DNA of 25,188 bases, taken from contig JAFUPG010000049.1 of assembly GCA_017481325.1 (NCBI GenBank), positions 1-25,188 of the forward strand, given 5' to 3'. The translations under genes and the position numbers were made by a program. Positions 1 to 18,253 of the stretch are shown here, in pieces; the first letter of the stretch is position 1; every line of letters begins with the position of its first letter. The notes beneath the pieces were generated by a model that was not told the DNA's origin, did not search any database, and saw only the letters and a program-made list of their open reading frames with translations. Origin of the DNA: Oscillospiraceae bacterium. GTDB lineage: Bacteria > Bacillota_A > Clostridia > Oscillospirales > Oscillospiraceae.

Positions 1-75
1 CGCCGCATCTGTAGCGCTCCTTCGTCGCTGACAGCTGCGCAGCCACGTCGCTACGCTCCTCGCAATGACATTGCG
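1..75. repeat. Interspersed-repeat-like non-coding segment
   Basis: Non-coding. Read on the minus strand it has the form TGTCATTGCGAGGAGCG followed by TAGCGACGTGG, which resembles a widespread class of short palindromic intergenic repeats seen in many bacterial genomes. Positions 61-67 and 69-75 form a perfect 7-bp inverted repeat (CGCAATG / CATTGCG). The segment is cut by the window edge. Assignment to a repeat family is from memory of the motif; copy number in the genome cannot be seen here. Confidence 0.45.
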
Positions 76-5908: not shown

Positions 5909-5941
5909 TCGGGCATCAATCAAATTTGTTCCGGGAGGAAA

Positions 5942-6793
5942 ATGAAAATGAAAAAGTTATTATCTCTGATTTTGGTTCTGAGCCTCATGACAGCTCTGCT
6001 GGTCGGCTGCGGCGGCAGCAGCGAAAGCGCCGACAAGGTCAAGGTCATCGATATCAAGCTCACTGAAGAAGAGTACGCCTTTGGCGTGGATAAGAACCAG
6101 CCCGAGCTGCTGGCGGAGGTCAATGCCTTCATCGGCAAGATCCTGTCCGACGGCACCTTCGAGGCCATCTGCAACAAGTATTTTGCTGACGGCGAGCCCA
6201 CGGCTGTCACCTCCGCCCAGCTGGACGAGAGCAAGGATCAGCTGATCGTGGCCACCAACGCCATGTTTGAGCCCTTTGAGTACACCGCCGGCGGCAAGTT
6301 CTACGGTATCGACATGGAGATCGCCGCTGCTCTGGCCGAATACCTGGGCAAGGAGCTGGTCATTATGGACATGGACTTTGAAGCCGTGTGTCTGGCCGTT
6401 GGCCAGGGCAAGTGCGACATCGCCATGGCGGGACTTACCGTCAACGAGACCAGAAAAGAGCACGTTGCCTTCACCGATGCCTACTATCAGGCATCTCAGG
6501 TCCTGGTGGTCAAGGCCGACGACACCACCTTCGATGCCTGCACCACCGCAGCCGAGGTGAAAGCCATTCTGAACGGCTTCGACAGCAAGACCAACTTCGG
6601 TGTCCAGACCGGCACCACCGGCCAGTACTATCTGGAGGGCGACGAGGACTGGGGCTTCACCGGCTTCGCCGTCACCACCACGGGCTATGTGTCCAGCGCC
6701 CTGGCTGTGCAGGATATGCTCAACGGCAATATCAACTATGTGCTGGTGGACGAGGCTCCCGCCAAGTTCATCGCCGATGCCTATAATAAGTAA
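5942..6793 (+). CDS. Amino acid ABC transporter substrate-binding lipoprotein, apparently circularly permuted
   Basis: Captures a polar amino acid outside the membrane and delivers it to the permease encoded next. Lipoprotein signal: basic start, hydrophobic stretch and lipobox LLVGC with Cys23. The core of a family 3 binding protein runs from about 97 (DQLIVATNAMFEPFEY) through GKCDIAMAGLTVNETR to about 283, where it stops at VLVDEAPAKFI. The stretch that normally follows that point, with its LTEEEYAFGVDK, ELLAEVN and DGTFEAICNKYF pattern, is instead found at residues 33-81, directly after the signal peptide. All parts of one domain are therefore present once, in rotated order, and 283 residues is a normal total. 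The substrate class (polar: Gln/Arg/His/Cys) is from family and context only. Confidence 0.9.
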   Translation: MKMKKLLSLILVLSLMTALLVGCGGSSESADKVKVIDIKLTEEEYAFGVDKNQPELLAEVNAFIGKILSDGTFEAICNKYFADGEPTAVTSAQLDESKDQLIVATNAMFEPFEYTAGGKFYGIDMEIAAALAEYLGKELVIMDMDFEAVCLAVGQGKCDIAMAGLTVNETRKEHVAFTDAYYQASQVLVVKADDTTFDACTTAAEVKAILNGFDSKTNFGVQTGTTGQYYLEGDEDWGFTGFAVTTTGYVSSALAVQDMLNGNINYVLVDEAPAKFIADAYNK

Positions 6794-6859: not shown

Positions 6860-7597
6860 ATGGAAGCATTTCTCTCCGGCAGCGACTTCGGCCGGAAACT
6901 ATTGGAATTTTGGGACTGGTTTATGGTCAAGGGGGACTATATCGTCGTCCTGGAGGGTCTGAAAAACACCCTCATCATCGCCGTCCTGGGTCTGCTCCTG
7001 GGCATTATCGTGGGTACGCTCATTGCCGTGGTGCGGATTCTGCCCAAGTATCGTGTCTTCCCCCGGATTCTGGATAAAATCTGCAGCGTCTATGTGGGCT
7101 TCTTCCGTGGCACACCCATTGTGGTGCAGCTGCTGCTGGCTTACTATGTGCTGCTGCCGCTCATGGGGCTCAATTTCCCTGCCGTCTCCGTCTGCGTGGT
7201 GGTCTTTGGTCTGAACTCCGGCGCTTACGTGTCCGAGATGATGCGTGGCGGCATCCAGTCCGTTGACCCCGGCCAGCTGGAGGCGGGCAGAGCCGTCGGT
7301 CTCAGCTTCGCCACCTCCATGCTCCGCATCGTCATCCCCCAGGCCATCAAGAATATCCTGCCCAGCCTGGGTAACGAGTTCATCTCCCTGATCAAGGAGA
7401 CCTCCGTTGCCAGCTTCGTCACCACCGTGGATATCTACAAGGCCTTTAACTCCATCGCCAACCACAGCTACGAGTATATCGTGCCCTATCTGGCCATGGC
7501 CGTCGTCTATATTATTCTGGTGGCCGTCATCACCCTCTTGGTAAAGCTCATGGAAAGGAGGCTCTCCGTCAGTGATAAGCGTACAGCATCTAAGTAA
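6860..7597 (+). CDS. Amino acid ABC transporter permease (HisM/GlnP type)
   Basis: Membrane channel subunit of the polar amino acid uptake transporter. The 245 residues contain about five hydrophobic segments (near 30-55, 73-95, 95-120, 195-235) in the His/Glu/Gln/Arg/opine permease fold. The coupling (EAA) loop that contacts the ATPase is clear around 143-175, with [10 protein letters not shown] followed by [18 protein letters not shown]. The ATG at 6860 has AAGGAA upstream. The ATPase gene begins inside its last 26 nt, so the two are translationally coupled. Confidence 0.93.
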
Positions 7598-8369
7598 AGA
7601 ATTCGACGGCCAGCCCGTCCTGAAGGATATTTCCGAAGAGATTTTGGAAGGGGAGAAGCTGGTGCTCATCGGCCCCTCCGGCAGCGGCAAGAGTACCTTC
7701 CTGCGCTGCCTGAACTGCATGGAGGACCCCACCTCCGGCACGGTGATCTTCGACGGCTACGACCTGACGGATCTCTCCGTCAATATCAACGTCGCCCGCC
7801 GCAAAATGGGCATGGTGTTCCAGCAGTTCAATCTGTTCAACAATATGACCGTTCTGGAGAACATCACCTTAGCCCCCATCCACGTGGCCAAAAAGAAGGC
7901 GAAAAAGGAGAGAAGAAAGAGCTTCAAATCCTGGCTCGACCTCCCCGGCCGCATGGCGGAGAAGAAGGCCATCCGTGCCGCCGCTGAAGAGAAGGCCATG
8001 GAGCTTTTGAAGAAAATCGGCCTGGAGGACAAGGCCGATGCCTATCCTGCCACCCTCTCCGGCGGCCAGAAGCAGCGGATCGCCATTGTCCGTGCCCTGG
8101 CCATGGACCCCAAGGTGATCCTCTTTGACGAGCCCACCTCCGCCCTGGACCCCGAGATGGTCGGGGAGGTTCTGGAGCTGATCAAGAAGCTGGCGGATAC
8201 GGGCATGACCATGGTCATCGTCACCCATGAGATGGGCTTTGCCCGAGAGGTTGCCACCCGGGTCTGCTTCATGGATCAGGGACAGATCATCGAAACCGGC
8301 ACGCCGGAGGAGATCTTCGACCACCCCAAGCACCCCCGTCTGCAGGAATTCCTCAGCAAAGTCCTATAA
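7572..8369 (+). CDS. Polar amino acid ABC transporter ATPase (GlnQ/HisP type)
   Basis: Hydrolyses ATP to drive the transporter. Walker [10 protein letters not shown] (34-42), Q-loop around FQQF (83-86), signature LSGGQ (162-166), Walker B ILFDEP (183-188) and the switch histidine in VTHEMGFA are all present. It starts at GTG 7572, chosen because AAAGGAGG lies about 10 nt upstream and the protein then begins like the family ([12 protein letters not shown]). At 265 residues it is about 20-25 longer than usual: the excess is a lysine/arginine-rich segment at about 107-137, inserted where family members read APIKVKK and then [10 protein letters not shown]. It overlaps the permease gene by 26 nt and ends the operon at a strong terminator. 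Confidence 0.94.
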
Positions 8370-8423: not shown

Positions 8424-9917
8424 TTAATTTGCATCAATCAGCTCCAGCAGGCGCAGCAGCATGGTCACGGCCTCGGCACGGTTCACCTGCGCCAGAGGAC
8501 GGAGGCTCCCATCGGGGTAACCCTGAATGACCCCCAGGCACTGTGCCTGTCCCATAGCCTCTCTTGCGTAGGGACTGATCTTGTCCCCGTCAGATGCGTG
8601 GGGCAGCCCTGTGGGCAGCTCCAGACCCTGATACCGGGCATAGCGCATCAGCATTACCGCAAACTGCTCTCGGGTCACATTGAGCTCCGGGCAGAACAAT
8701 CCATTACCCATGCCGTTGACGATTTTCCGCTCCACCGCCCACTGTACGCTGTCTGCAAACCAGACACCCTCGGGAACATCCGTAAAGCCGGAAGCTGTTC
8801 CCGGTGCCGCCTCCTCCGAGGCACGGAAGAGCATGGTGATAGACATGGCACGGGTCACAGGGGTACTTGCGGAGAAGGTAAAGGCAGAGGTTCCGAAGAT
8901 CAGCCCCCGGGCAGCGGCCTCAATGGCGGCCTCCCGATACCAGGCGTCTTCGGGAATGTCCGTAAACAGCTCCTTGGCGAAAACCGCCCGAACCACCATG
9001 GATTTTTCTGCGGTAAAGCTGTAGGGGTTGCTGCGGCTCAGGAGATTTCCCTCCAGATCAAACCAGGCGATGAAGCGGTCGCCCCAGGCATGGACGGTGA
9101 CCGTTTCTCCGACCGCATAGGTTCCTGCGCCGGAGGCCATACCCGAGGCGGTGGCCCACACGGTGATCACCGGATGATAGGCAGGCTCCTGGGCTACGGG
9201 CAGGAATTGGGCGTCCCGTTCTGCGTTGAGCTCTGTCTCCTGGGTGTAGCGCCAGGCATTCTCGTAGGGCACGCCGAAATAGTAGTAGGGATTGGGAGAG
9301 GTGGCGTCCCAGGACCAGCGGTAGTCCCGCTGGGGGTCGAAAATGTAGTATTTGCCGTCGATGAGAAGCTCCGTCCAGCCGTGGTGGCCGTTGGTGGTGC
9401 CGAACAGGGGCTCAATCTGGAAATTGCCCGTATGCACATAGGCATCGATGCCGATATAACGCACCAGCAGAGCAAAGGCGGCGGCATAGTCGTAGCACAC
9501 GCCCTCGCCGTATTTCATGGCATGGTAACTGCGGTTGACGATCTCGTAGGGGACGACCTCCTGACGGCCGGGGTCGGTGTAGCTCAGCTCATACTGGGGC
9601 ACAAAGCAGTCGTAAGCCGGCGCCCAGTTCTGAGAATAGGGCGCCCAGGAGTATGTAATATTGCAAACAACCCAATCGTAAGCGGCCTTAACTCTGGTAA
9701 AAGTATCCGCATCGCCGTAAGGCGTCAGAATTTCTTCCATCATCTCGTCGATTTCCCGGTAGCCCGTGGGCTGGGGGTGCAGCTCGATACCATTGAGCAG
9801 TGCCTTCATGTCCTCCATGTCCAGGGCATCGGCGGCGGAAACGGCGGGGATGCACAGGGAGATCAGCAGTACCAGCGCAAGAGCCAGCAGGCAGCTTCGT
9901 TTCAAAAATCGCTTCAT
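8424..9917 (-). CDS. Secreted transglutaminase-like protein with SLH domains
   Basis: A 497-residue exported protein. Signal peptide 1-28 ending AVSA. A transglutaminase-like/cysteine protease domain spans about 65-200, with the expected catalytic Cys in GEGVCYDYA (Cys141), His in GHHGWTE (His179) and Asp in FDP (Asp194). An InlB-like beta-grasp repeat follows (about 250-314), then three SLH domains (about 318-367, 378-427, 440-490) that should bind it to secondary cell wall polymer. It may remodel peptidoglycan or surface proteins; the substrate is unknown. I prefer the ATG at 9917 over the TTG at 9923 because it is ATG and lies 10 nt from AAAGGAG. It stands alone, with its own promoter and a shared terminator. 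Confidence 0.9.
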   Translation of the reverse strand: MKRFLKRSCLLALALVLLISLCIPAVSAADALDMEDMKALLNGIELHPQPTGYREIDEMMEEILTPYGDADTFTRVKAAYDWVVCNITYSWAPYSQNWAPAYDCFVPQYELSYTDPGRQEVVPYEIVNRSYHAMKYGEGVCYDYAAAFALLVRYIGIDAYVHTGNFQIEPLFGTTNGHHGWTELLIDGKYYIFDPQRDYRWSWDATSPNPYYYFGVPYENAWRYTQETELNAERDAQFLPVAQEPAYHPVITVWATASGMASGAGTYAVGETVTVHAWGDRFIAWFDLEGNLLSRSNPYSFTAEKSMVVRAVFAKELFTDIPEDAWYREAAIEAAARGLIFGTSAFTFSASTPVTRAMSITMLFRASEEAAPGTASGFTDVPEGVWFADSVQWAVERKIVNGMGNGLFCPELNVTREQFAVMLMRYARYQGLELPTGLPHASDGDKISPYAREAMGQAQCLGVIQGYPDGSLRPLAQVNRAEAVTMLLRLLELIDAN

Positions 9918-9945
9918 GAACAAATCGCTCCTTTCGGATAGTACT

Positions 9946-15495: not shown

Positions 15496-16464
15496 ATGAA
15501 AAAGACAAGTATGATGAAACTGATGTCCCTGATTATGGTGCTGGGACTGCTTTTGAGCCTGACGGCCTGCGCAGAGAAGGACGACGGCAAGTATACCATC
15601 GGCATCTGCCAGCTGGCGCCCCACGAGGCGCTGGATGCTGCTACCCAGGGCTTTAAGGATGCGGTGATTGCCGCTCTGGGCGAAGAGAACGTGACCTTCC
15701 TGGAGCAGAACGCTGCCGGCGAGAACAATATGTGCACCACCATTGTCAATGACTTCGTATCCAAGAAGGTTGACCTGATCATGGCCAACGCCACCGGCGC
15801 TCTTCAGGCCGCTGCCAATGCCACCCTGGAGATCCCCATTCTGGGCACCTCCATCACCGAGTACGGTGTCGCCCTTGGCCTGGAGAACTTCAACGGCACC
15901 GTAGGCGGCAATATCTCCGGCACCTCTGACCTGGCTCCTCTGGAGGATCAGGCGCAGATGATCCTGGATCTGGTACCCGATGCCAAGACCGTTGGCATGC
16001 TCTATTGCTCCGGCGAGCCCAACTCCGCCTATCAGGTTCAGGTGGTCAAGGCTTACCTGGAGGGCAAGGGCATCACCGTGGAGGATTATTCCTTCTCCGC
16101 ATCCTCCGATGTGGCCATCGTAGCAGCCGCAGCAGCCGCTGCCTGCGATGCCATCTACATCCCCACGGATAACACTGCCGCCACCTGCACCGAGACCATC
16201 AACAATGTGGTTCTGCCCACCAAGACCCCCATCATCGCCGGTGAGGCCGGTCTCTGCAGCGGCTGCGGCATTGCCACACTGTCCATCAGCTACTATGAGC
16301 TGGGCAAGCAGACCGGTGAAATGGCTGCCAAGATCCTCAAGGGCGAGGCCGACATCTCCCAGATGCCCATTGCCTATGATCCTAAGCCCGTGAAGAAGTA
16401 CAACGCAGCCCTTTGCGAGGAGCTGGGCATCCAGATCCCCGAGGGCTACGAGCCTCTGAGCTAA
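15496..16464 (+). CDS. ABC transporter substrate-binding lipoprotein (TrpX-like, COG2984 type)
   Basis: Binds a small molecule outside the membrane for the permease and ATPase encoded next. Lipoprotein signal with lipobox LTAC (Cys25). The mature part has the two-lobed ABC_sub_bind pattern: ICQLAPHEALDAATQGF near the start, DLIMANATGALQAA, LGTSITEY, PNSAYQ, YIPTDNT and PIIAGEAGLCSGCG. In streptococci related systems (TrpXYZ) are linked to tryptophan; in other Firmicutes the substrate is unproven, and here no Trp T-box is seen. The 322 residues are a normal length. The ATG follows GAAGAGGAGA. A strong hairpin separates it from the permease gene. Confidence 0.9.
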   Translation: MKKTSMMKLMSLIMVLGLLLSLTACAEKDDGKYTIGICQLAPHEALDAATQGFKDAVIAALGEENVTFLEQNAAGENNMCTTIVNDFVSKKVDLIMANATGALQAAANATLEIPILGTSITEYGVALGLENFNGTVGGNISGTSDLAPLEDQAQMILDLVPDAKTVGMLYCSGEPNSAYQVQVVKAYLEGKGITVEDYSFSASSDVAIVAAAAAAACDAIYIPTDNTAATCTETINNVVLPTKTPIIAGEAGLCSGCGIATLSISYYELGKQTGEMAAKILKGEADISQMPIAYDPKPVKKYNAALCEELGIQIPEGYEPLS

Positions 16465-16476
16465 ATCCTTAAAAAA

Positions 16477-16518
16477 ACATAACTGTGCCTCCGCATATTT
16501 GCGGAGACACAGTTATGT
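16477..16518. terminator. Long hairpin between binding protein and permease genes
   Basis: 19-bp arms with one C-A mismatch (16477-16495 and 16500-16518) around a TATT loop, 12 nt after the binding protein stop. An A tract precedes it, but a U tract is missing on the plus side. It probably causes partial termination or protects the upstream mRNA so the binding protein exceeds the membrane subunits. Confidence 0.7.
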
Positions 16519-16551
16519 TGTATCGTATAAATTTCAAACAGGAGACAAAAC

Positions 16552-17457
16552 ATGAATCTATCGGGACTTTTTAACGCCATGCCCGGTGCCGTGGCGCAGG
16601 GCATGATCTGGGGCATCATGGCCATCGGCGTTTATATCACCTTCAAAATTTTAGATCTGTCCGACCTGACCGTAGACGGCTCCATGGTCACAGGCATGGC
16701 GGTCTGCGCCATGCTTATGGCGGCAGGCTGGAATGCCTGGGCGGCCATGGGCGTAGCAATTCTGGCCGGTATGGCTACCGGCCTGGTGACGGGCATTTTC
16801 CATACGGTTTTGGGCATTCCAGCCATTCTCTCCGGCATTTTGACCCAGCTGATCCTCTGGTCTGCCAATCTGAAGATCATGGGCAAGGCCAATCAGGCGC
16901 TGCCCGCCAGAAATTTCCCCGTGCTGATCTCCCAGCTGTATCAATATAAGGCGCTGTGGATCCTGGCGCTGTTTTACATCGTGCTGATTCTGGTGCTCTA
17001 CTGGTTCTTCGGCACCAAATTCGGCACGGCCATCCGTGCCACCGGCTGCAACGAGAAAATGGCCAGAGCCCAGGGCATCAACACCAACCGCAACAAGGTT
17101 CTGGGCTTTGTGATCTCCAACGGCATCGTGGCGCTCTCCGGTGCGCTCCTGGCCCAGTACTCCGGCAAGGCGGACATCAACGACGGCAGAGGCGCCATTG
17201 TCATCGGCCTTGCGGCGGTGATCATCGGCGATGCCCTGGTGGGAAAGCTGTCTACCAATTTTATCGTCCGTCTGCTGGGCGTGATCCTGGGCGGCGTGGT
17301 GTACTATCTGGTCTACCAGACGGTGATCTTCCTGGGGCTGGACACGGATCTTTTGAAGATGTTCTCCGCCATTGTGGTGGCGATTTTCCTGGCCGCACCC
17401 CACCTGAAGAAGACCTACTTCTCCAAATCCGTCAAAAAGAGCAGGGAGGTGAAGTGA
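16552..17457 (+). CDS. ABC transporter permease (COG4120 type)
   Basis: Membrane subunit of the TrpX-like transporter. The 301 residues have about eight hydrophobic segments. Family-typical elements: an early GIMAIGVYITFKILDLSDLT followed by DGSMVTG, a central IRATGCNEKMARAQGIN that resembles the coupling region of branched-chain/ribose type permeases, and GKADINDGRGAIVIGLAAVIIGDAL. AGGAGA precedes the ATG. It ends one base before the ATPase start. Confidence 0.9.
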   Translation: MNLSGLFNAMPGAVAQGMIWGIMAIGVYITFKILDLSDLTVDGSMVTGMAVCAMLMAAGWNAWAAMGVAILAGMATGLVTGIFHTVLGIPAILSGILTQLILWSANLKIMGKANQALPARNFPVLISQLYQYKALWILALFYIVLILVLYWFFGTKFGTAIRATGCNEKMARAQGINTNRNKVLGFVISNGIVALSGALLAQYSGKADINDGRGAIVIGLAAVIIGDALVGKLSTNFIVRLLGVILGGVVYYLVYQTVIFLGLDTDLLKMFSAIVVAIFLAAPHLKKTYFSKSVKKSREVK

Positions 17458-17458
17458 G

Positions 17459-18253
17459 ATGCTGGAAATCAAAAATATCACCAAGATCTTCAATGCCGGT
17501 ACGGTCAATGAGAAGGTGGCCATCGACGGCCTCTCCCTGACCCTGAACGACGGCGACTTTGTTACCGTCATCGGCGGCAACGGCGCCGGCAAATCCACCC
17601 TCCAGAACCTCATCGCCGGTACCTACCTCCCCGACGGGGGCGAGATCCTCATCGACGGCACCAATGTGACCAGGCTGCCGGAGTTCAAGCGTGCCAAATA
17701 CATCGGCCGAGTGTTCCAGGACCCCATGGTGGGCACGGCGGCGGATATGTGGATCGAGGAAAATATGGCGCTGGCCAAGCAACGGGGCAAGCGCCGAGGT
17801 CTCTCCTGGTCCATCTCCCAGTCGGATCGGGAGGAGTTTAAAAAGCAGCTTTCCGTCCTGGGTCTGGAGCTGGAGAACCGCCTGTCTACCAAGGTGGGGC
17901 TGCTCTCCGGCGGTCAGCGTCAGGCCATTACCCTGCTTATGGCTGCCATGAACCACCCCAAGCTGCTGCTTTTAGACGAGCACACTGCCGCCCTGGACCC
18001 CAAAACCGCCGCAAAGGTGCTGGAGATCACCCAGCATCTGGTAGAGGCGGACAAGCTCACCACCCTTATGATCACCCACAATATGCGGGATGCCATTGCC
18101 ATCGGCAACCGCCTGATCATGATGAACAACGGCAAGATCATCTATGATATCAGCGGTGAGGAGAAGAAAAAACTCACCGTCTCTGCCCTTATGGATCTCT
18201 TCGCCCGGGCATCCGACGGCAATTTCGCCAACGACCGCATGCTTCTGGGCTGA
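17459..18253 (+). CDS. ABC transporter ATPase (COG1101 type)
   Basis: ATP-hydrolysing subunit for the preceding permease. Walker A GGNGAGKST (39-47), signature LLSGGQRQA (148-156), Walker B with the unusual LLLLDEHTAALDP (169-181), where Glu-His replaces the common Glu-Pro; I know this DEHTAALDP form as typical of the COG1101 group that pairs with COG2984 and COG4120, so it supports the grouping rather than signalling damage. Switch histidine in MITHNMRDA. GGGAGGTGA just upstream serves as the ribosome site. The operon ends with a strong terminator. Confidence 0.93.
   Translation: MLEIKNITKIFNAGTVNEKVAIDGLSLTLNDGDFVTVIGGNGAGKSTLQNLIAGTYLPDGGEILIDGTNVTRLPEFKRAKYIGRVFQDPMVGTAADMWIEENMALAKQRGKRRGLSWSISQSDREEFKKQLSVLGLELENRLSTKVGLLSGGQRQAITLLMAAMNHPKLLLLDEHTAALDPKTAAKVLEITQHLVEADKLTTLMITHNMRDAIAIGNRLIMMNNGKIIYDISGEEKKKLTVSALMDLFARASDGNFANDRMLLG

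What the first reader, a model, noticed from the sequence alone, without database searches (positions are those of the whole stretch)
5942..6793. Naturally circularly permuted amino acid binding protein
The protein begins, right after the lipoprotein cysteine, with the segment that normally ends family 3 binding proteins (IDIKLTEEEYAFGVDK, ELLAEVN, DGTFEAICNKYF; residues 36-81). It then runs through the normal N-terminal to hinge regions and stops at VLVDEAPAKFIADAYNK, exactly where the moved segment would normally continue. Every part is present once, so this is a rotation, not a duplication or fusion. The new ends fall in the loop after the second hinge, which moves the membrane anchor to a different face of the protein and may change how it docks on the permease. 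Whether this is already known in clostridial homologues I cannot tell.
Basis: partly seen in the sequence, partly recalled or inferred. Interest (0 to 1): 0.72.

Follow-up and report, generated by a model that had tools for sequence, protein, structure and literature searches.

The report
Circularly permuted amino acid binding protein
This bacterial nutrient-capture lipoprotein has its parts in a naturally rotated order, and the same kind of rotation has arisen repeatedly, at three different cut points, in its clostridial relatives, so it is a recurring evolutionary move and not a one-off oddity.

Summary
The 283-residue ORF at 5942-6793 carries the normal C-terminal segment of an SBP_bac_3 protein (residues 33-82) right after its lipobox, then the normal N-terminal part, and stops where the moved segment would begin. 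Rotated in silico it aligns to AncQR in one piece with a higher score, and AlphaFold2 folds the moved segment confidently. One correction: the new ends lie inside the small lobe, before the second hinge (GlnBP ~171), so the lipid anchor moves from the large to the small lobe. The gene heads an ordinary amino-acid ABC importer operon; relatives in the same order are widespread in Clostridia. Three cut sites (types A, B, C), all inside the small lobe, are scattered over the tree; a single origin is rejected. In one genus the same locus is permuted in 16 of 59 genomes and canonical in others. '1.5-copy' proteins look like relics of tandem duplication. Natural permutants are known in other binding-protein families (TpMglB-2, betaine binders); my searches listed no report for this one.

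The parts
5933..5939 (+). Shine-Dalgarno-like GGGAGGA
   Evidence: Read in the sequence; 2 nt before the ATG at 5942, 8 nt before the ATG at 5948. Motif recognised from general knowledge.
5942..6010 (+). Signal peptide and lipobox LVGC; Cys23 at 6008-6010
   Evidence: Sequence; C23 invariant in A1 and A2; lipobox motif recalled.
6011..6037 (+). Short tether, residues 24-32, between the lipid anchor and the small lobe
   Evidence: Sequence; in 113 type A relatives measured by script this spacer is 6-25 residues in 111, 44 and 47 in two.
6038..6061 (+). Moved segment, part 1: last strand of the small lobe (residues 33-40)
   Evidence: Pairs with GlnBP 173-180; strand E33-36 in the model.
6062..6076 (+). 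Second hinge (residues 41-45)
   Evidence: Pairs with GlnBP 181-185 (hinge limits).
6077..6187 (+). Moved segment, part 2: normal C-terminal strand and two helices of the large lobe (residues 46-82)
   Evidence: AncQR 183-232 pairs with residues 33-82; helices 54-69 and 72-79, pLDDT block means 91-97 for residues 31-80.
6188..6238 (+). Junction linker joining the old C terminus to the old N terminus (residues 83-99)
   Evidence: Lies between the two aligned blocks.
6239..6481 (+). Normal N-terminal part of the large lobe (residues 100-180), with ligand residues G164, T166, R171
   Evidence: ligand residues by pairing with GlnBP G68, T70, R75.
6482..6496 (+). First hinge (residues 181-185)
   Evidence: Pairs with GlnBP 85-89.
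6497..6790 (+). Small lobe without its last strand (residues 186-283), with D270; protein ends here
   Evidence: VIA-align: model residue 283 pairs with GlnBP 171 (1ggg) and LAO 176; D270 pairs with GlnBP D157.
6860..7597 (+). ABC permease (BPD_transp_1; HEQRo_perm_3TM)
   Evidence: PF00528 88.4 bits; TIGR01726 76.8 bits, cut-off 42.2.
7572..8369 (+). ABC ATPase, closest to GlnQ-type models
   Evidence: PF00005 126.5 bits; best NCBIfam GlnQ 302.9 bits, below its equivalog cut-off of 379.

Best explanation
The gene encodes the substrate-binding lipoprotein of a polar-amino-acid ABC importer whose SBP_bac_3 fold is naturally circularly permuted (type A: order C-segment, N-segment, small lobe). 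Shown by computation: the rotation, the cut inside the small lobe, the retained residues that grip the alpha groups of an amino acid, the operon with permease and ATPase, and the repeated appearance of permutation in related clostridial proteins. Inferred: it works as an ordinary Venus flytrap (large lobe now one continuous chain, small lobe split between the two ends, both hinge strands kept), tethered to the membrane through the small lobe by a short linker. Inferred origin: tandem duplication and fusion of an SBP gene, then loss of the front of copy 1 (signal peptide kept) and the back of copy 2, as in the 1.5-copy relatives.
For: Order: rotated query one piece, 97.1 v 86.3 bits; 119 of 120 homologues. 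Fold: AF2 pLDDT 88.9, pTM 0.78, residues 31-80 at block means 91-97 with the canonical C-terminal elements; VIA-align ends canonical chains at e.g. GlnBP 171, LAO 176, ArgBP 196 for model residue 283 and leaves their remaining C-terminal part unmatched. Cut. Ligand residues G164, T166, R171, D270 kept; N106, Q222, T226, V269 stand for GlnBP D10, K115, G119, H156; six of these eight are in the invariant list of A1, T226 too, V269 is not. Operon: of 80 relatives 69 have at least 1.7 kb downstream; 68 have permease and ATPase there, 1 has them divergent. Recurrence: 113-row tree, 16 state changes, one clade of all permuted rows rejected. One-genus switch at one locus with shared flanks and one derived clade. 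Intermediates D2-CP-N1-D2-CP (55 of 120) and N1-D2-CP-N1 (10 of 120) next to type B (55 of 120).
Against: No experiment shows folding, binding or transport. The order-bound structure aligners could not superpose the moved segment, and no coordinates were available for a permutation-aware superposition; TM-scores are modest (0.38-0.48 by query length). In 6 of the 50 VIA rows the aligned range starts at model 42-55, so part of the moved segment was laid on another part of the target. No 1.5-copy intermediate was seen for the window's own tight family (only P0059, a repeat-ridden fragment), and its nearest canonical relatives are distant (about 40% identity), so its own route is inferred from relatives. 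Substrate unknown.
Confidence: 0.9

Rival explanations
1. A normally ordered SBP with an unrelated N-terminal extension.
For: The best stretches of Pfam and NCBIfam cover only about residues 86-274.
Against: Residues 33-82 align to the canonical C terminus, the rotated query scores higher in one piece, the normal C-terminal elements are missing at the C terminus, and the segment is strongly conserved.
Confidence: 0.02
2. A fusion of pieces of two different paralogous SBPs (C-segment of one, N-segment and small lobe of another) and not a rotation of a single parent.
For: Permutation by tandem duplication always joins two copies, and tandem SBPs exist (GlnP SBD1-SBD2; L205/L237). The nearest canonical relatives of the window family are too distant to decide.
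Against: In the genus-level case all three segments of the permuted protein are closest to the same canonical protein among the rows compared (L126 v L155: 89, 76, 67%), with related signal peptides and linkers. This is for relatives, not for the window family.
Confidence: 0.1
3. An assembly or gene-calling artefact.
For: Many relatives are MAGs; P0059 has exact internal repeats.
Against: Same order in records not marked as MAGs: Acetivibrio clariflavus (P0093), A. mesophilus strain N2K1 (L027) and Lachnospiraceae bacterium C6A11 (L063), and, for a separate event, Butyrivibrio sp. AE2032 (P0294); the ORFs I read have their own signal peptide at the new end.
Confidence: 0.01
4. The permutation was selected because it moves the lipid anchor to the small lobe (adaptation), and not merely tolerated.
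For: All three cut types (A, B, C), by my reading at window-equivalent positions 283/31, ~192 and ~213/217, lie inside the small lobe, and the events are many. PMC4990184 suggests an anchoring reason for TpMglB-2 (Discussion read).
Against: Cuts may simply be tolerated there; the permease tree of the one-genus case is not concordant with SBP order, as if the two orders were interchangeable. No functional data.
Confidence: 0.35

Closest known systems
SBP_bac_3 (PF00497) amino-acid binding proteins: AncQR, T. maritima ArgBP, E. coli GlnBP
   Same: Sequence family, two-lobe fold, alpha-group ligand residues, operon partners
   Different: Chain order rotated; termini and lipid anchor on the small lobe
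TpMglB-2 (Tp0684) of Treponema pallidum, 'Type Ic / Cluster Bc' (PMC4990184; passages, Discussion)
   Same: Natural circular permutation of a lipoprotein binding protein of an ABC importer, with Gram-positive homologues
   Different: Sugar-binding Type I / Cluster B fold, another cut with a fourth lobe crossing; the passages I read treat one permuted subclass
Glycine betaine binding proteins such as OpuAC (PMC2395249, section 11 read)
   Different: Deep relations between proteins under 24% identical, not repeated recent switches inside one family; the window's type A has another cut
Tandem SBDs of Lactococcus GlnP (6h30)
   Same: Contains the C-segment to N-segment junction seen here (query 45-276 spans SBD1-SBD2)
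   Different: Two complete canonical domains; here one set of parts

Membership tests
SBP_bac_3 (PF00497) | Profile score above the curated cut-off | tested here: met
   107.2 bits v 26.4
SBP_bac_3 (PF00497) | Canonical N-to-C order of the domain | tested here: not met
   Order CP-N1-D2; filed as a permuted variant
SBP_bac_3 (PF00497) | Residues binding the amino acid alpha groups (GlnBP G68, T70, R75, D157) | tested here: met
   G164, T166, R171, D270; roles of G68/T70/R75 from a passage of PMC7400645, of D157 recalled
Polar amino acid (HEQRo) ABC importer | Neighbouring permease of the HEQRo 3TM family and ATPase | tested here: met
   TIGR01726 76.8 v 42.2; PF00005
Polar amino acid (HEQRo) ABC importer | Known substrate (an equivalog model of the SBP passes its cut-off) | tested here: not met
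   All 13 NCBIfam models listed for the SBP are below cut-off, e.g. GlnH 91.5 v 303
Lipoprotein | Lipobox with invariant Cys, lipid attachment | not testable with these tools
   LVGC and invariant C23 seen; lipidation needs an experiment
Type Ic / Cluster Bc (TpMglB-2) | Type I sugar-binding fold with permutation | tested here: inconclusive
   Sequence matches shown are SBP_bac_3-type; TpMglB-2 is not in the fold rows shown, which proves nothing
OpuAC (PF04069) | Pfam match | tested here: not met
   Not listed for the window protein at E <= 0.1
Tandem SBD proteins (GlnP type) | Two complete domains in one chain | tested here: not met
   One CP and one N1-D2 in the window protein; one CP, one N1, one D2 in its 281-aa homologues

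The most novel reading that the evidence does not exclude
Clostridial amino-acid binding lipoproteins undergo circular permutation repeatedly, on the time scale of species within a genus, by tandem duplication and truncation, at three preferred sites that all put the lipid anchor on the small lobe; canonical and permuted versions are interchangeable on the same permease and are sometimes paired in one operon, so chain order is an evolvable trait of these importers, set by how the protein is tethered and not by the fold.
Probability: 0.5. Interest if true: 0.82.

Novelty: new variant of a known kind. Interest (0 to 1): 0.68.

Why it matters
Circular permutation is usually inferred between ancient, barely similar proteins. 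Here the same locus is caught in both orders within one genus, and forms that look like duplication intermediates still exist in relatives, so the mechanism and its functional cost can be tested directly. It also warns that annotation by profile or BLAST coverage misses chain order, and it makes the idea that tethering drives permutation (proposed for TpMglB-2) testable on many independent events.

Tried and rejected
Whole-genome search of the window's own assembly: none is held. Viral contigs: 31 pattern matches, none a relative. Rfam at gathering scores: no match in the window. PDB sequence searches: 92 distinct sequences at 0.01 with one protein and 109 with the profile, best 60 shown each; I saw no permuted chain among the rows shown (6h30 is a tandem), the rest were not seen. 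Fold searches are order-bound, so they show what is missing, not where the moved segment goes; for type B they also lay one lobe on the other (e.g. GlnBP 8eyz_B at 10% identity), so its likeness to OpuAC is only a lead. Coverage patterns alone were not trusted: G879 and G875 (L149, L150) matched 1-278 but read canonical.

Rejected: 'unique oddity', 'single ancient origin', 'artefact'. Caveats on the tree: the polyphyly was first suggested by the tree, so the AU group was not named blind; the fetched rows were chosen partly because they looked permuted. Of 259 ORFs with N1, 28 were dropped before the tree (19 with other or incomplete orders, 9 type A with weak scores), 205 remained after removing copies, and 116 were used (recount): the window family thinned from 83 to 11, the one genus from 25 to 9, and its L126/L161 sequence fell out by an oversight of mine. 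L112 then sat twice (as B and C); one search dropped that B copy and three long-branched rows (L230_2304, L016_2725, L203_1480). Changes may be gains or losses.

Literature: eight searches on permutation and one on GlnBP domains in the open-licence library; no report of permuted SBP_bac_3 proteins in the listings, but subscription papers are not held and the listings are short. PMC3688454 was checked for the word (one passage, unrelated). Horn et al. 2006 on OpuAC was seen only as a reference.

Full report
What was checked. The ORF at 5942-6793 is real and begins with a signal peptide and the lipobox LVGC (motif recalled). It scores 107.2 bits against SBP_bac_3, in two stretches. Against solved structures, residues 100-273 match residues 11-170 of the ancestral binding protein AncQR and residues 33-82 match residues 183-232, so the normal C-terminal segment stands first. 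The 33-82 piece alone is weak (15.2 bits), but a second chain (4f3p) gives the same split, and when the window protein is rotated in silico AncQR aligns in one piece (6-240 to 12-232) and the score rises from 86.3 to 97.1 bits. AlphaFold2 on a 63-row alignment gives pLDDT 88.9 and pTM 0.78; residues 31-80 have block means of 91-97 and show strand, strand, helix, helix, the elements that normally end the fold. VIA-align, which keeps chain order, ends the target at GlnBP 171, LAO 176 or ArgBP 196 when the model ends, leaving the rest of those chains unmatched; in 6 of its 50 rows the range starts at model 42-55, the others at 93 or later. Foldseek TM-scores are modest (0.38-0.48 by query length). 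This is what a permutation predicts, though no coordinates were at hand for a permutation-aware superposition.

Where the cut lies. GlnBP has a large domain (5-84, 186-224), a small domain (90-180) and hinges 85-89 and 181-185 (passages of PMC13229503, and PMC7400645; the first prints '181, and 189'). Aligned to E. coli GlnH, GlnBP 171-173 pairs with window 31-33 and hinge 2 with window 41-45. The lipid anchor, canonically on the large lobe, is now on the small lobe by a nine-residue tether; the large lobe becomes one continuous chain.

What it does. The residues that hold the alpha groups of the ligand in GlnBP (G68, T70, R75 from PMC7400645; D157 recalled) are kept as G164, T166, R171 and D270; N106, Q222, T226 and V269 stand where GlnBP has D10, K115, G119 and H156 (roles of the last three recalled). 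The next two genes are a HEQRo-type permease (TIGR01726 76.8 bits, cut-off 42.2) and an ATPase. None of the 13 NCBIfam models listed for the SBP passes its cut-off, so the substrate, probably a polar amino acid, is unknown. Of the 80 loci nearest by sequence, 69 have at least 1.7 kb downstream; 68 of these have permease and ATPase there and one (L063) has them divergent.

How common. 119 of the 120 listed homologues have the order CP-N1-D2 (66-98% identity; the exception P0059, 55%, has CP-N1-CP-N1-D2). In 84,980 species genomes 365 of 450 pattern matches encode a relative; 80 were kept and all 80 hold a CP-N1-D2 ORF. In samples that include the seed genome G005, the tight family was in 2 of 398 genomes of its phylum (E <= 1e-40) and in 17 of 245 of its class (52-72% identity over the N-part; all 17 read as permuted). 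In a sample of 250 genomes of the family of G001 (seed included), 33 loci were read and 26 genomes hold a permuted SBP_bac_3 gene of some type (14 A, 11 B, 1 C), a lower bound. Records not marked as MAGs include Acetivibrio clariflavus, A. mesophilus and Lachnospiraceae bacterium C6A11.

Independent events. In a tree of 113 rows (54 canonical, 38 A, 20 B, 1 C) built from separately aligned segments, the four states need 16 changes; type A needs 9, and the starred branches force 9; forcing all 59 permuted rows into one clade costs 966 log-likelihood units (p-AU 1.1e-71). The rows were not a random sample, the group was suggested by an earlier tree, and changes may include reversions: canonical L104 and L153 lie next to permuted proteins with 84% and 69% N1 identity.

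One locus, two orders. In the genus of G592 (seed included), 56 of 59 genomes have the gene at E <= 1e-30: 16 matched over nearly the whole permuted query and 40 only over N1-D2 (G927 only 139-282). I read all 16 of the former and 15 of the 40 others; they are type A and canonical respectively; the other 25 rest on coverage. Signal peptides and the stretch before N1 are related in both orders. In L174 the junction reads as the canonical C terminus followed by the canonical N-terminal linker, and the new C terminus stops just before the moved strand. L161's permease-side ORF has a match in all 30 other loci (short in L181), and its upstream divergent ORF in 26 of 30. The 16 permuted rows are one clade (99/91, 100% of 200 bootstraps) nested among canonical ones, so canonical is ancestral there. 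The permease tree (30 rows) is not concordant (4 changes, 2 forced), as if both orders had been combined with the same permeases. Butyrivibrio sp. AE2032 carries a permuted form 82% identical to L126 (P0294). Of 120 listed homologues of L126, 60 are type A, 58 canonical and 2 lack CP.

Route. Of 120 listed homologues of a type B protein, 55 are D2-CP-N1, 55 are D2-CP-N1-D2-CP (373-427 aa) and 10 are N1-D2-CP-N1 (354-392 aa). These 1.5-copy forms are what tandem duplication with truncation at either end would leave. A full tandem exists too (L205/L237, one gene). No such form of type A was seen in the window family's 120.

Comparison with the known. Natural permutation of binding proteins is on record for TpMglB-2, a sugar-binding Type I lipoprotein whose authors propose 'Type Ic' and suggest anchoring as a reason (PMC4990184; passages, Discussion), and among glycine betaine, molybdate and CysB-type proteins, at under 24% identity (PMC2395249, section 11). 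The present case differs in family (SBP_bac_3), in the number of recent events, in the three cut sites and in the surviving 1.5-copy forms. Eight searches of an open-licence library listed no report of it. I file the window gene as a new variant of a known kind.

Limits. Everything is computational. Frequencies are lower bounds from samples. The window family's own origin is inferred from relatives, its nearest canonical relatives being only about 40% identical. Whether the new anchor point changes docking or transport is untested.

Noticed in passing
L223-L236: Dual-SBP operons: SBP, permease, ATPase, then a second SBP. Of 14 loci picked because two SBP hits lay on one contig, 10 have a canonical first SBP and a CP-before-N1 last one, 2 (L230, L231) have CP before N1 at both ends, and in 2 (L233 with canonical first, L236 with type B first) the last gene is unclear; the small lobe of six of the CP-N1 last genes was below threshold.
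   Followed up: partly
P0122-P0175 and others: 1.5-copy SBPs with one N1 and two small lobes (D2-CP-N1-D2-CP, about 390 aa): which small lobe pairs with the single N1, or whether they alternate, is an open and testable question.
   Followed up: partly
L027, 7080-7217: In Acetivibrio mesophilus a degraded fragment resembling the window SBP (45.7% over residues 172-217, stops in frame) lies about 2.2 kb after the intact gene.
   Followed up: partly
7572-8369: The ATPase carries a charged insertion between the Q-loop region and the next helix; in the window family the gap measured 30-53 residues in the 31 proteins where my pattern worked (45 not parsed); outside it only four values (17, 17, 26, 26) were parsed and 119 were not, so it is not shown to be specific.
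   Followed up: partly
P0059: A 383-aa family member with exact internal repeats of signal peptide and junction; possibly a partial duplication, possibly an assembly fault.
   Followed up: no
L145, L151, L152: Very long ORFs (1000-1245 aa) with several SBP segments in series, probably multi-domain sensors or tandem SBPs.
   Followed up: no
genus of G592, permease tree: SBP order and permease phylogeny disagree, suggesting recombination between the SBP and permease genes.
   Followed up: partly
15496-18253: A second ABC operon in the window: lipoprotein, permease, ATPase, which looks from recall like the ABC_sub_bind (TrpXYZ-like) type.
   Followed up: no
8424-9923 (-): A secreted protein that looks from recall like a transglutaminase-like domain with S-layer homology repeats.
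   Followed up: no
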